Below the pieces are notes generated by a model. The model searched no databases, was not told the origin of the DNA, and saw only the letters and a list, made by a program, of their open reading frames with translations. 64,000 bases of DNA, taken from Daucus carota subsp. sativus (Eukaryota; Streptophyta; Magnoliopsida; Apiales; Apiaceae). The position numbers and the translations under genes are program-made. Below, piece by piece: positions 1,451-44,502 of this stretch; the stretch's first letter is position 1; each line of letters begins with the position of its first letter. Location: contig NC_030382.2 in NCBI RefSeq assembly GCF_001625215.2, positions 36,132,610-36,196,609 of the forward strand, in the 5' to 3' direction.

Positions 1451-1471
1451 GAGTTGGGCTCTTTAGAAACC
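1451..1471. mobile_element. 21-bp terminal remnant of the TA-embedded MULE family
   Basis: A 21-base island lies between a short TA run (1442-1450) and the long (TA)n at 1472-1534. It begins GAGT, has CTCT at bases 9-12 and ends in an AAAC block. The left end of the large MULE at 32739 has the same layout: GAGT, CTCT at the same spacing, and AAAC at bases 18-21. I read it as the leftover tip of a lost or excised family member. It is short, so this rests on the shared spacing and the shared TA context. Confidence 0.4.
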
Positions 1472-1534
1472 TATATATATATATATATATATATATATAT
1501 ATATATATATATATATATATATATATATATATAT
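1472..1534. repeat. (TA)n microsatellite
   Basis: An uninterrupted TA dinucleotide tract of about 60 bp. It separates the 21-bp remnant from the non-autonomous element that follows. Confidence 0.95.
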
Positions 1535-1992
1535 GGATAGGATCAAATAAAAACTTTTTTAAGTTACAAACTTACAAACTTTTTTTTAATCTTCCATCGT
1601 GTTAATCCTTAGTTATTTAAAGTATCCATGTTGAAAATTCTTCAAAAAACATCACAATTTTTAATAATAACGCATAAATAAATCGCGTTTTCAACACATT
1701 TATAACTGGGGTTCAACATCGGGTGTTGAACACTAATTATCATTGTGTTGAATATATCTAAAAAGATGTTTAAACTATACCTCTGGGGTTTGGGTAGGGT
1801 CTAGAAACATAAATATTAGTTATATAACATGTTTACCCTAGTTCTTACATTTAAAAATTGGTTTATGTACTTCTCCACCACTATTTTAATAGATGTTCAA
1901 CAAAATATGTTAAAAATATGTTGAACTCAAGTTATATATGTGTTGAACAAAAAAAGTTTGTAAGTTTGTAAGTTTGTACCAGAACCCTCCCC
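1535..1992. mobile_element. Non-autonomous MULE-type MITE in (TA)n, copy 1
   Basis: A 458-bp non-coding element lies exactly between two TA tracts. Its left end has GATCAAATA and a TTTTTTAA block, nearly the same as the right end of the large MULE read inward from 44502. Its right end, read inward, has 14 bases and then TACAAACTTACAAACTTAC, giving the same spacing as the MULE ends. The interior has repeated GTTCAACA/TGTTGAA words, partly as inverted pairs. A second copy (32187-32558) matches over most of its length but lacks about 85 bp near the left end. It has no coding capacity and was presumably mobilised by an autonomous relative. Confidence 0.7.
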
Positions 1993-2069
1993 TATATATA
2001 TATATATATATATATATATATATATATATATATATATATATTTCCATATATATATATATATATATATAA
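1993..2069. repeat. (TA)n microsatellite, interrupted once
   Basis: A TA tract on the right side of MITE copy 1, broken by a TTCC at about 2041. The minus-strand reading frame of Ile-Tyr repeats through it is an artefact of TA repetition. Confidence 0.95.
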
Positions 2070-40061: not shown

Positions 40062-43000
40062 TTAACACACATTTGTTTCTATTCCTCCTTTTTTCTTTGG
40101 ACAAGTTCTAGAATCATGAGTCGTCGCAGAGCATTCTTTGCATCTTCTAATCCTTTTCTTCGATTTATTCAATGCTTTCTCCCGGTCACTGATCAACCTC
40201 TTGAAATGATTACCTTTGTTCTTTGAAATGTTTGGTACAAGAATATTAAGTTCTCCAACTGGCTGTTCACCAAGAATAGATGCAATATGATCTTTCTTAC
40301 TAAACTCAGCAGCATCACTCCCATATTTTTCAAGCTCAGCATTTATTTCCTTTATAGCTTTGTGCACATATTCAAGTTTCTCTAAATCAATACCAGCATT
40401 GTTAACCGTTTGACGAAAATCAAACCATATGTTTGACAACTTTAAAGACACTCTCTCCATCTTGAAATAGTCATTAGATACCAGATCAACATCTGATCCA
40501 CTGCCACACTCAGCGATTTTCATCCATCTGTTAAGCACGAGGCTTCTAGGAAATTTTGTAACGCCTATTTGCTTCAAGCCACAGAATGCATGCCTACATA
40601 CTATTCCACACATAACAAATTTCTTACATGAACATACAGCATGAGCTTTACTAACGGAAACCTGCATTAAAAAAAAATAACTGAAATCAGTTCCCATAAA
40701 ATATATGTGAAAATCTGTTAAACTACATTACATTGCTATAATCTTAGTACCTAAAATATATGTTATGTTAGTTATGCATTCTGCATTCAAAAAAGTAACC
40801 ACAACACAAAATATAATAAAAATTAAATTAAATTTAACAGGTTTTATATCACATTAAAACAACTAAACTAATTATATTATACTATTTATCACATACCTTA
40901 AAAATTTTGTCCTTAACCTTCACATCTCTAATTTCAAGATGAATGACTCCATTAACATCTTCACTCATCTTCTTAATCTGCATTTCCAAGCACGATGCTA
41001 AAATTTCTTCCTAAAGCTTGTAAAAAATTGCACGCGTAAAGATGTCAGCAGCATCATTTTCAATAAACCATCTTGACAACGTTGATGGACTGCTAGAATT
41101 CGACTCGTGGTCTAGTCTCTTTGTTTCATTCCGCTGCCTATCCATAGCACTCTGAAACCGTATCCAAAACTCACACAATGTATCACTCTGTCTATGAAAA
41201 TGGCCAAAAAAAAAGTTTTCACTTTCAGACCTACTTGTTGTTCTCAACAAACCAAACATTGGACTGTCCCTAAAATATGAAGGGATCCATGATGCCCTCA
41301 TCTCATACATATCAGATAGCCACTTGTTTTCCTCAAGATTAAACTCTTTAATAACAGATTTCCAGCCATTTTCAAATTCTTCAACCTCCAATGTTGATGA
41401 CCAAATATAAGCCTTCATTTTCTCCATAAAATCAGTCTCCTTGCACAAACGGTTACCAAGCTGCAACAATAAGAACGAAATTGGTCAGTATCTCTATGTG
41501 CAACCAAAAAATAATCAACTCAACTAATATGCATAACTTTAAATTACTACCTTAATTGGAAATTTTTGCATAATATGCCACATACATAGACGATGCTTGC
41601 TAGCAACTAATCCATTTTCAGAAGAAAAACAATCAGGGATAGCTATCTTCATCGCAGGGCACTGATCAGTAATCAAAACAACTGGATTACGTCCCATTGC
41701 CTTCACAAAATGCCTAAATGCCCAGCTAAAATGAGTAACATCCTCCTTTGCTAAAAGACAAGCAGCAAATGTAACACATCGATCATGTTTATCAACACCG
41801 GTAAACGGCGCAAAAATCATATTATACCTACACAAAAAACAACAAAAATAAAAAACTCAATATAAACATATAATATAGGACAAACTACTACACCTAGAAA
41901 AAATAAAAAATTGCAGTGCAATGTTGCACAAAATGATGCAGTTCAACTACAAACACTACAACCACTTAAACTAAAAAAATGTCCAAATCACTAAACAAAC
42001 TGCATATACTACTAAATTATTAGACAAAAATCACTAAAACTACTAGCTGAATCACTATAACAACCTCAGAAAAACCAGTACACTGCAGTTCAAGGATTGA
42101 TGCAAAGGCGTATCTACTTGTAAAAACTCTTGTACATTCGGACGTTAAAATGCAACTGTATTTAAACCAAAATCCTTCATTACAAAATATAAGGATTTGC
42201 AGCCTAGTGGTTACAGGGAACGTAGCAACACATAGTTATCAGAGAAAAAAAATCTGACATTTTACGTACAAGTCAGAATGGTCAAGCAAAGTGATGAGCA
42301 CAAATAGAGGTTACATGATAAAATAAAAAGAAGAAAGAAAATGGTGAAGATAGTCGTTTGGCAAGGATGGAGATAGCATCTGGACTCCAACAAAATTAAG
42401 ATGACATGCAATGATAAAAAAGAAGAAGAAACCATTTTAAATCAAAAGTGGAGATCATCAAACAACTGGTTAATCACAACGGCGCGCCTTAGAAAATTTT
42501 GAAGCATAGCAAGGTAAATTGAGACAGTGAAGTATGAATTATGCAAGACAGCGAACTAATGGTGTAAACTACTGCCATACACAAACTACCAGCTAGCATT
42601 TACTACTGCCATACACAAACTACAAGCTGAATAACTATAACACACTAAATTATTAGACAGATCACTAAAAACTACTAGCTTAATCACTATAACAGACTCA
42701 CAAAAACAGGGTAATACAATTCAAAAAAAACATACTATACACAGAAAAATGTCACTCAACAAGTACACGAAACTTACTTGTTCGTATCAAATGTGGCATC
42801 AAAGGACACGGCATCTCCATATATTTCAAAATTCCGTCTACCAGTTGGATCAGCCCAAAACAGCATGATTAAATGTCCATCTGGATCCAATTCATAAGCA
42901 AAATAAAAAGCTTTCGAAGTCTCCTGCATAACCTTGAAGTTGTCTATTACCATCTGACCATCTCTTACACCAACATATTCTTTCAAATCACGACTGAAAT

Positions 43001-44139
43001 TTCTGAAATCACGTAAGGTTGCACCTACATTACTATAACCACCAGCCATTTCCTTTACCAAACTATAAGCCTTGCTGCATCCAATGTTAACCTTACTAGC
43101 ATCAAAAACCATATTCCGCAAACTAATACTCATATCTCTACTACATCTCAAAAACTGCCGACCGTCTTCACTAGCTAAAGGATGATTATGCGACTCAACA
43201 AAATTCAATATAAAATACCTATTAAGACTCATAATCTTGACAACTATTTTCGCTTTGCATCCACATCTACGAGACCCCGTACGCCTTTCCTTAACAATTT
43301 TACCAACCTTTTCTTCACTGCCAAAATTAGCTACATTATAACCTTCTTTACTGCAAACAAAGTGTTTCAAAATAATCGTCCCATCAGCATCCTTTTTCTC
43401 CGTTCCCTTTCTTACATCAAAACCTCCCAACCTTCCATACTCCTTATAAAACTTAAACGCCTTGTCTAAACTATCAAACACCTGATTAGGAAACGGCAAC
43501 TCAACTAAGTCAACAGAACTTGGTAAATAATACTTCTGACCACCAGGAGACAACGTGTAGTTTGTTATTGAACTATCACATTCATCAGAAACAACAACAT
43601 CACTGACATCAACAGCCCCCACACGAGAACAATCACCACAAGTCGAACCTGTTTGCGAAAAAAACAAAAGCACATATCAGCTGCTCAACTCTTTTGAACT
43701 AGATACTAACTATAAAAACAGAATTATTCAAAAAATCTAACATATCATCATCAAAATCACACAGTCACCTCTCACATAGCCTCAATTGCAAGCTCAAAAA
43801 TACAAAATCCTCAAAAGATAATAATCAAAATCACTACTCAATTTAATATTATATATCTAAAAAATCAAAGCAAAAACTTGATTCTCACATTGTAAACTAT
43901 CACATAGCCTCCATTACAAAAGCTCAAACACAAAATTCCTCAAAACATAATAACGAAAATCACAACTCAATTAACATTCTATACCTAACACTATCAAAAC
44001 AAAAAACTTGATCTTCGACAAAAAATTATACTTCAAAATCGAAAACATAAAATAAACTAAGATTAACAGTAAATATAATGCACATAAGATGCAAATTACC
44101 TTGATTATCACTGATTTTAGCCAAATCCAATGTAATCAT
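40062..44139 (-). CDS. FAR1/FRS-type Mutator-like transposase, interrupted by one in-frame stop
   Basis: Exons from the 5' end are 44139-44100, 43648-42778, 41827-41551, 41460-40897 and 40661-40062, 784 codons in phase. A FAR1-type zinc DNA-binding domain spans residues about 70-165 (Cys in FVCSKEG and CGCKA, His in ESHNHPL). The DDE catalytic core follows, with Asp in VSFDATF, Asp in LITDQCPA and a candidate Glu in SRSESENFF. The SWIM finger is CSCKKFVMCGIVCRHAF, and the C terminus has a CCHC knuckle (CKECSATTHDSRTC). The only defect I see is TAG at 41013-41011 (codon about 546), between FYKL and EEILASC, where relatives usually have Gln. Without read-through the product would lack the SWIM finger. 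A host-gene (FRS) reading is less likely given the terminal repeats. Confidence 0.85.
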
Positions 44140-44454
44140 CTTCGATCAATGGAAAAAACAACACAACCTCAGTTCGAAGAGAGAAGCAACCGTTCGAACA
44201 GAGAGCTATTCACCACAAGTCTTCTGCTCAGTGAAAAATCTCCGACAAATCGTTAACAGACGATGATATCGAGAAATATATGATAGTTTAGAGAGAGAGA
44301 TATGACAGTTAGAGAGATGAGTGTTTGATGAGAGAGAAAGTAACGGAATGAATGCGTTGATTACGTAAAAATCTTTGTCTTTTATATTTTTTTTATTTGA
44401 TTTAATTCAATGGCTGAGATTAAAAGATGATATTATTTAATGGATGGATAAGAT

Positions 44455-44502
44455 AAGTTCCTAGTTTTTATTTTTAAAAAGGTTTGTATTTGATCAAAAG
44501 CC
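44455..44502 (-). repeat. Right terminal inverted repeat of the MULE
   Basis: Read inward on the minus strand: GGCTTTTGATCAAA, TACAAACC, TTTTTAAAAATAAAAACTAG. The GATCAAATA...TTTTTAA part is nearly identical to the left end of the MITEs at 1535 and 32187. Confidence 0.65.

What the first reader, a model, noticed from the sequence alone, without database searches (positions are those of the whole stretch)
1451..44502. A transposon family that lives inside (TA)n microsatellites, with one shared terminal layout
Five termini in this window abut TA tracts and share a layout: 14 variable bases and then a 7-base TACAAAC-like block. They are the MULE ends at 32739 and 44502, both ends of MITE copy 1 (1535 and 1992), and the remnant at 1451-1471. 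The MITE left ends also share GATCAAATA and TTTTTAA with the MULE right end. MITE copy 2 lies in TA tracts too. The rice Micron family is a known microsatellite-targeting element. Here an autonomous partner of a similar system seems to be present with its MITEs.
Basis: partly seen in the sequence, partly recalled or inferred. Interest (0 to 1): 0.78.

Follow-up and report, generated by a model that had tools for sequence, protein, structure and literature searches.

The report
Mutator-like transposons inside TA microsatellites
This stretch of a plant genome that matches carrot holds a large Mutator-type jumping gene and two small relatives sitting in runs of TATATA, a kind of transposon already described in carrot and other plants; the genome-wide counts add a shared 21-base end signal and clean 10-base insertion scars.

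Summary
All ends of the MULE (32739-44502) and of two MITEs (1535-1992, 32187-32558) abut (TA)n; three distinct ends carry exactly N14-TACAAAC. The assembly (441.1 Mb) fits carrot DH1 v3. In it (TA)6-N14-TACAAAC occurs 1456 times against 55 for the reversed pattern. The 14 bases are not free: the better rule is GG-N7-TC-N7-AAC. It follows 2992 of 4744 (TA)6GG boundaries; sliding TC by one base leaves 11. TACAAAC is only the commonest block.

The MITE looks young: the 40 copies scored are 97-100% identical, 32 of 40 lie between TA tracts, and six of 12 informative copies carry exact, non-pure-TA 10-bp target duplications (null mean 0.08). That is ordinary Mutator-type cut-and-paste. The MULE encodes FAR1 and MULE-transposase domains. 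Two near-identical copies elsewhere also lie in TA tracts and lack the in-frame stop that breaks the window copy.

TA-targeting MULEs with MITEs are already published (Micron, MuTAnT, SaTar, pineapple), and for carrot itself (MiMs, 15 families). So this is a new member of a known kind. The shared terminal code is the part I did not find in print. That this MULE mobilises this MITE is not shown.

The parts
1451..1471 (.). 21-bp remnant between TA tracts, resembling a terminus (GAGTTGGGCTCTT + TAGAAAC, one base off the layout)
1472..1534 (.). TA tract, left flank of MITE copy 1
1535..1992 (+). MITE copy 1 (458 bp); 40 matches of 97-100% identity in the genome, itself included; most copies have one more G at the left end
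1993..2068 (.). TA tract interrupted by TTCC, right flank of MITE copy 1
31926..32136 (.). part of repeat X, a palindromic repeat; of three copies read elsewhere two are bordered by TA tracts on both sides and one on one side; different terminal sequence
32137..32186 (.). TA tract between X and MITE copy 2
32187..32558 (+). MITE copy 2 (372 bp; 89.6% identical to copy 1 over 346 bp; left tip truncated, internal deletion)
32559..32661 (.). TA tract between MITE copy 2 and a short X-like segment
32662..32685 (.). 24-bp segment with partial similarity to 32117-32136 and to 44521-44550 on the other side of the MULE
32686..32738 (.). TA tract, left flank of the MULE
32739..44502 (-). Mutator-like transposon (11.76 kb); ends GAGTCATACTCTACTACAAAC and GGCTTTTGATCAAATACAAAC; the transposase is on the - strand
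42774..43676 (-). exon with FAR1 DNA-binding domain (PF03101, E 2e-18)
41539..41856 (-). exon with MULE transposase domain (PF10551, E 7e-17)
41011..41484 (-). continuation of the transposase (no Pfam match of its own); an in-frame stop at 41011-41013 that the two near-identical copies lack
40062..40727 (-). C-terminal piece with a weak SWIM zinc finger (below Pfam cut-off)
35082..38638 (+). pieces of a second gene in opposite orientation, tentatively ULP1-like (DUF1985 E 0.0013; Peptidase_C48 E 0.043; both below Pfam cut-offs)
44503..44520 (.). TA tract, right flank of the MULE
44601..44680 (.). X fragment to the right of the array (holds a 54-bp direct repeat of 31926-31979, 96%)

Best explanation
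These are Mutator-superfamily DNA transposons that use alternating TA DNA as target. Shown here: MITEs and FAR1-type MULEs share a 21-bp terminal code (GG-N7-TC-N7-AAC), sit mostly in (TA)n, and in half of the copies where it can be seen the MITE has an exact 10-bp target-site duplication. Inferred: a FAR1-type MULE transposase binds the coded termini, excises the element and inserts it with a 10-bp staggered cut at TATATATATA-like DNA. Because the duplicated 10-mer is itself TA repeat, every insertion leaves a fresh TA target on each side, so elements stack side by side rather than inside one another. The tracts may lengthen later by slippage. The window MULE is a recently moved copy whose transposase now has a stop codon; near-identical copies without that stop exist on two other chromosomes. 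The MITE is a young non-autonomous family using the same or a related transposase.
For: Transposase domains: FAR1 and MULE. Three MULE copies 99.78-100% identical in the FAR1 exon; in all three both ends abut TA tracts, and the outer flanks look unrelated by eye. Of 30 FAR1-exon loci, 23 have (TA)n plus a TC...AAC tip about 0.8-1.2 kb upstream (that test did not require GG), and two more have TA plus a tip changed in its 7-mer. Genome counts: (TA)6-GG-N7-TC-N7-AAC 2992, TC slid by one 11, all (TA)6GG 4744. MITE: 40 scored copies 97-100% identical; TA on both sides 32, one side 3, neither 5; identical abutting 10-mers in 32 of 40. Among the 12 copies whose flanks are not both pure TA, six have an exact 10-mer, against a null mean of 0.08 and maximum of 1 in 2000 re-pairings. 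Coded elements side by side across one short TA tract at three places: the locus of L010-L012, the locus of L015-L017 and L055.
Against: Six of the 12 informative MITE copies do not show an exact 10-bp duplication: two are 9/10, one 8/10, and three are 0-2/10; L048, L038 and L026 have shortened ends, L053 does not. Five of 30 MULE loci showed no tip within 1.5 kb. The C3 copy of the MULE (97%) does not match the outer 142 bp of the distal end. MITE right end and MULE ends are not alike beyond the code. None of the 23 tips found at transposase loci equals the MITE's left end. TSDs were never seen for the MULE itself, only pure TA. No empty site, expression or activity was examined.
Confidence: 0.8

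Rival explanations
1. Circle-and-recombine: excised circles with microsatellite filler between the ends enter genomic microsatellites by homologous recombination (the model proposed for SaTar elements in PMC5907723).
For: Most copies lie in pure TA, where a duplication cannot be told from tract length. A few copies do not fit a 10-bp duplication, such as L053 and L026.
Against: Exact 10-bp duplications at imperfect or non-repeat targets in 6 of 12 informative copies, including L019, a copy 99% identical to the window's at a target without a TA tract. The same young family makes both kinds of insertion.
Confidence: 0.1
2. The TA tracts are made by the elements: insertion occurs at short AT-rich sites and the tracts expand afterwards, so TA is a consequence rather than the target.
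For: Uninterrupted tract length on the right side ranges from 1 to 82 bp among 30 near-identical copies. In the maize TAFTA precedent as told in PMC5907723, empty sites were short (6-8 bp). (TA)6GG is about ten times commoner than its reversed control (4744 versus 489).
Against: Copies at imperfect sites keep short flanks, so expansion is not obligatory. Published MuTAnT empty sites averaged nine TA repeats (PMC4486113). The two views can both be partly true.
Confidence: 0.25
3. The window MULE is not the partner of the window MITE; the MITE belongs to another MULE lineage, and their meeting in one window is chance.
For: The MITE right end has no similarity to the MULE beyond the 21-bp code. 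None of the 23 tips found at transposase loci is GGGATAGG. One other coded MITE family (868 bp, L015-L017) aligns to the MULE ends at 83-85% over 35-39 bp.
Against: The MITE left end and the MULE promoter-side end share GATCAAATA and the following T-rich block, above all 3000 random 60-mers. Two further coded elements (L010-L012, L013-L014) gave no match to the MULE ends either.
Confidence: 0.5
4. The layout is a chance match in AT-rich DNA.
For: TACAAAC alone is not clearly enriched in the window (20 observed, 14.4 expected; 8 of 100 shuffles reach 20).
Against: Genome-wide 1456 versus 55; 2992 versus 11 when one pair of bases is slid.
Confidence: 0.01

Closest known systems
MiMs (MITEs inserted in microsatellites) of carrot, PMC8227079 (passages read)
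   Same: Same host if the assembly is carrot; TA-flanked MITEs with poorly conserved TIRs, 15 families, 2156 copies; three families linked to putative autonomous Mutators.
   Different: The passages read give no shared terminal code; the family lists are in supplements I could not open, so whether this MITE is one of the 15 is untested.
MuTAnT / AutoMuTAnT of Medicago truncatula, PMC4486113 (abstract, Results, Discussion read)
   Same: Mutator-like, TA microsatellite target, MITE-like copies plus a transposase-bearing element in TA tracts, TSDs visible only outside perfect TA.
   Different: 9-bp TSD and fold-back TIRs there (mean 47 bp); 10-bp TSD and short imperfect TIRs here. AutoMuTAnT is 4.9 kb with a single ORF; the element here is 11.8 kb with a likely second gene.
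SaTar elements and AgS-MULEs of guayule and rice (Micron = rSaTar2), PMC5907723 (abstract, four Results/Discussion sections and search passages read; the last part of the Discussion not read). The original Micron paper was not read.
   Same: 10-bp TSDs outside microsatellites, side-by-side non-nested arrays, autonomous MULEs in microsatellites.
   Different: That paper suggests a recombination model; the duplications counted here fit ordinary cut-and-paste.
Ac-mMITEs of pineapple, PMC8449440 (abstract and three sections read)
   Same: TA-targeting MITE families sharing TIR ends, clustered, with 9/10-bp TSDs outside TA.
   Different: No autonomous partner was found in pineapple; here transposase-bearing relatives with like tips are present.
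ULP1-bearing MULEs such as KI-MULE (PMC2528002, passages read)
   Same: Transposase plus a gene in reverse orientation that looks ULP1-like.
   Different: KI-MULE is described there as a non-TIR MULE, and the word microsatellite does not occur in that paper's text; the ULP1 assignment here is weak (below Pfam cut-offs).

Membership tests
Mutator superfamily (MULE) | MURA-type transposase | tested here: met
   PF10551 E 7e-17, above its Pfam cut-off; FAR1 domain E 2e-18
Mutator superfamily (MULE) | 8-11 bp target-site duplication | tested here: met
   For the MITE: exact 10 bp in 6 of 12 informative copies. For the MULE itself only pure TA flanks were seen, so not testable there
Mutator superfamily (MULE) | terminal inverted repeats | tested here: met
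   Short and imperfect. MULE ends score 20 against each other; 0 of 3000 random 60-mers reach that against the right end (best 18), but the best random 60-mer against the left end also scores 20; end-anchored identity 26 of 45
TA-microsatellite-targeting MITEs (MiM) | most copies flanked by (TA)n | tested here: met
   32 of 40 both sides, 3 one side; 217 of 290 exact left ends preceded by (TA)5
TA-microsatellite-targeting MITEs (MiM) | related autonomous element in microsatellites | tested here: inconclusive
   Transposase-bearing elements in TA with like tips exist; a MULE with both ends of this MITE was not found, and only 30 transposase loci were read
SaTar | side-by-side arrays without nesting | tested here: inconclusive
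   Side-by-side elements at three places and in the window; nesting was not surveyed
TA-microsatellite-targeting MITEs (MiM) | empty sites are (TA)n | not testable with these tools
   Only one genome of the species is held
Micron (rice) | sequence homology to Micron | not tested
   No Micron sequence was at hand
KI-MULE type | ULP1 protease gene opposite to the transposase | tested here: inconclusive
   Peptidase_C48 E 0.043 and DUF1985 E 0.0013, both below cut-off

The most novel reading that the evidence does not exclude
A single 21-bp terminal code (GG-N7-TC-N7-AAC, three anchors nine bases apart) marks MITE families that are otherwise unlike each other and a clade of FAR1-type MULEs. It acts as a common docking signal, so one transposase clade can move many families into (TA)n, and about 63% of all (TA)6GG boundaries in this genome are therefore transposon ends. 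Each insertion regenerates its own target, which would explain the non-nested arrays without a recombination model.
Probability: 0.4. Interest if true: 0.6.

Novelty: new member of a known kind. Interest (0 to 1): 0.42.

Why it matters
The carrot MITE paper says it is unclear how these elements propagate, whether autonomous Mutators move them and how they reach TA tracts (PMC8227079, passages). A shared terminal code, near-identical transposase-bearing copies and visible 10-bp scars make all three questions testable in one species. The counts also suggest that most (TA)6 tracts that end in GG in this genome border transposon ends, which bears on their use as markers.

Tried and rejected
Scanned viral and prokaryote contigs for the layout: 2 and 7 hits. 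By eye their flanks look unlike these termini, and I judged them chance or unrelated; no further test was made. The idea that TACAAAC is the invariant block was dropped: it is 41 of the 100 listed termini that fit the GG-TC-AAC pattern. The idea that the 14 bases are variable was dropped: TC at 10-11 in 88 of 100 listed (TA)6-N14-TACAAAC termini, 56 of 63 distinct ones. Both lists are the first-listed places only, all on contig C1, out of 2992 and 1456. X as a member of the coded set was rejected because its ends do not fit the code by eye. Using X copies as related empty sites was not carried through: X is itself bordered by TA and rearranged in the window. Literature search for four terminal strings gave 3 papers whose titles and abstracts are unrelated to transposons; only the listing was seen. 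A control with AAC slid by one was asked three times and never answered, so only the TC position has a slide control.

Rows and limits: the 40 MITE copies are the 40 that the tool scored out of 799 first-look candidates (a 41st, shorter match beside one of them is not counted), so they are probably the youngest part of the family. L036 and L037 share flanks, and several left ends on C2 at 10.5-11.1 Mb lie close together, so copies are not all independent. L018 is the window copy itself. The 30 MULE loci are the best 30 of 40 scored out of 80 candidates.
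Full report
What is in the window. The window lies in assembly G000 at C2:36132610-36196609. G000 has 441,086,747 bases in 11 contigs; C3 is 64.56 Mb and C4 51.15 Mb. There are 8 TA tracts of at least five units in 64 kb, and seven adjoin the elements in question.

The termini. At offset 14 from a tract, TACAAAC is exact at four of 16 tract flanks: both MULE ends and the right ends of both MITE copies. Genome-wide, (TA)6-N14-TACAAAC occurs 713 + 743 times against 22 + 33 for the reversed pattern. 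Among 100 first-listed of these, 88 have TC at positions 10-11. The pattern (TA)6-GG-N7-TC-N7-AAC then gives 2992 places against 0 for its reversed form; with TC slid by one it gives 11. All (TA)6GG boundaries number 4744, against 489 for the reversed control, so 63% carry the code. In 100 first-listed coded termini TACAAAC is the 7-mer in 41, TAGAAAC in 23, TAAAAAC in 9 and eight others make up the rest. The slide control was obtained for TC only. The MULE's left end begins GA, so it fits TC and AAC but not GG.

The MITE. Copy 1 finds 41 matches, of which 40 are 97-100% identical over at least 452 of its 458 bases; the tool scored 40 of 799 first-look candidates. Flanks of the 40: TA (at least 10 alternating bases within 30) on both sides in 32, one side in 3, neither in 5. 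Of the five with neither, four have an exact 10-bp duplication (L019, L024, L035, L051) and one (L048) has lost its left tip. Overall 32 of 40 have identical abutting 10-mers; in the 12 where at least one 10-mer is not pure TA, six are exact, two 9/10, one 8/10 and three 0-2/10. Re-pairing flanks among the 12 gave a mean of 0.08 and never more than 1 in 2000 trials. The exact left-end 21-mer occurs 290 times, 217 of them after (TA)5. Most copies have one more G at the left end than the window copy, which brings the block to offset 14.

The MULE. The - strand carries a FAR1 domain, a MULE transposase domain and a weak SWIM match, in several pieces. The piece at 41011-41484 ends at an in-frame stop after which a further open stretch continues in the same frame; the copies on C1 and C6 have no stop at that point. 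Only that region of the two copies was read for stops, so whether they are intact throughout is not known. The FAR1 exon has 40 scored matches: the window at 100%, two of 99.8-99.9%, one of 97%, two of 88% (one of them partial), the rest 70-77%. For C1 and C6 both ends match the window MULE at 98.8-99.3% and both abut TA tracts. Of 30 loci read, 23 have TA plus a TC...AAC tip upstream and two more have TA plus a tip with a changed 7-mer. The tips are mainly GGCTTTTGATCAAATACAAAC and GGCCAAGGATCAAATAGAAAC. The opposite-strand gene is only tentatively ULP1-like.

MITE and MULE. The MITE left end and the MULE promoter-side end are more alike than any of 3000 random 60-mers from the window; the MITE right end is not. 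Of three other coded MITE elements looked at, one (868 bp) aligns to the MULE ends at 83-85% over 35-39 bp and two do not. So the window MITE and MULE share the code and one end, and a direct partnership remains open.

The local array. MITE copy 2 and the MULE are separate modules joined by TA tracts and embedded in pieces of X, a palindromic repeat with 276 reported matches; of three X copies read, two are bordered by TA on both sides and one on one side. This is the side-by-side architecture described for SaTar elements (PMC5907723).

Mechanism. The duplications point to staggered insertion of 10 bp, as in Mutator. Association with alternating TA is shown by the flanks; that TA was there before insertion is inferred, most directly from the imperfect TA targets that are duplicated. 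That the FAR1-type transposase does the work, that it reads the 21-bp code, and that the duplicated TA regenerates the target are inferences.

Known or new. TA-targeting MULEs or MITEs are published for rice, Medicago, guayule, pineapple and carrot. In Medicago an autonomous partner was already claimed as the first (PMC4486113). The finding is therefore a member of a known kind. I did not find the terminal code in the text I read or in one string search of the library; supplements were not open to me, so it may be there.

Noticed in passing
G000 C2:10.54-11.11 Mb: Nine exact MITE left ends, all on the + strand, are listed within this stretch, several 12-20 kb apart, suggesting a tandem or segmental duplication carrying the MITE.
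   Followed up: no
31926-32136, 44601-44680: Repeat X, a palindromic repeat with GTTGCATATG-type internal repeats, is bordered by TA tracts in the copies read but has other terminal sequences; possibly a second TA-targeting type.
   Followed up: partly
33456-42661: TTAGTGAT/ATCACTAA octamers: 24 of the 29 in the window lie inside the MULE, and similar repeats are visible in other coded MITE elements; possible protein-binding sites.
   Followed up: partly
44556-44597: A (CA)n tract follows the TA tract and X-like segment to the right of the MULE.
   Followed up: no
31726-31900: CTCCCTCC/CCATCCGTCCC strings that resemble Stowaway ends (name recalled) lie just left of X.
   Followed up: no
15629-17968 (-): A long open frame that looks like a GRAS transcription factor (recognised by eye, not searched).
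   Followed up: no
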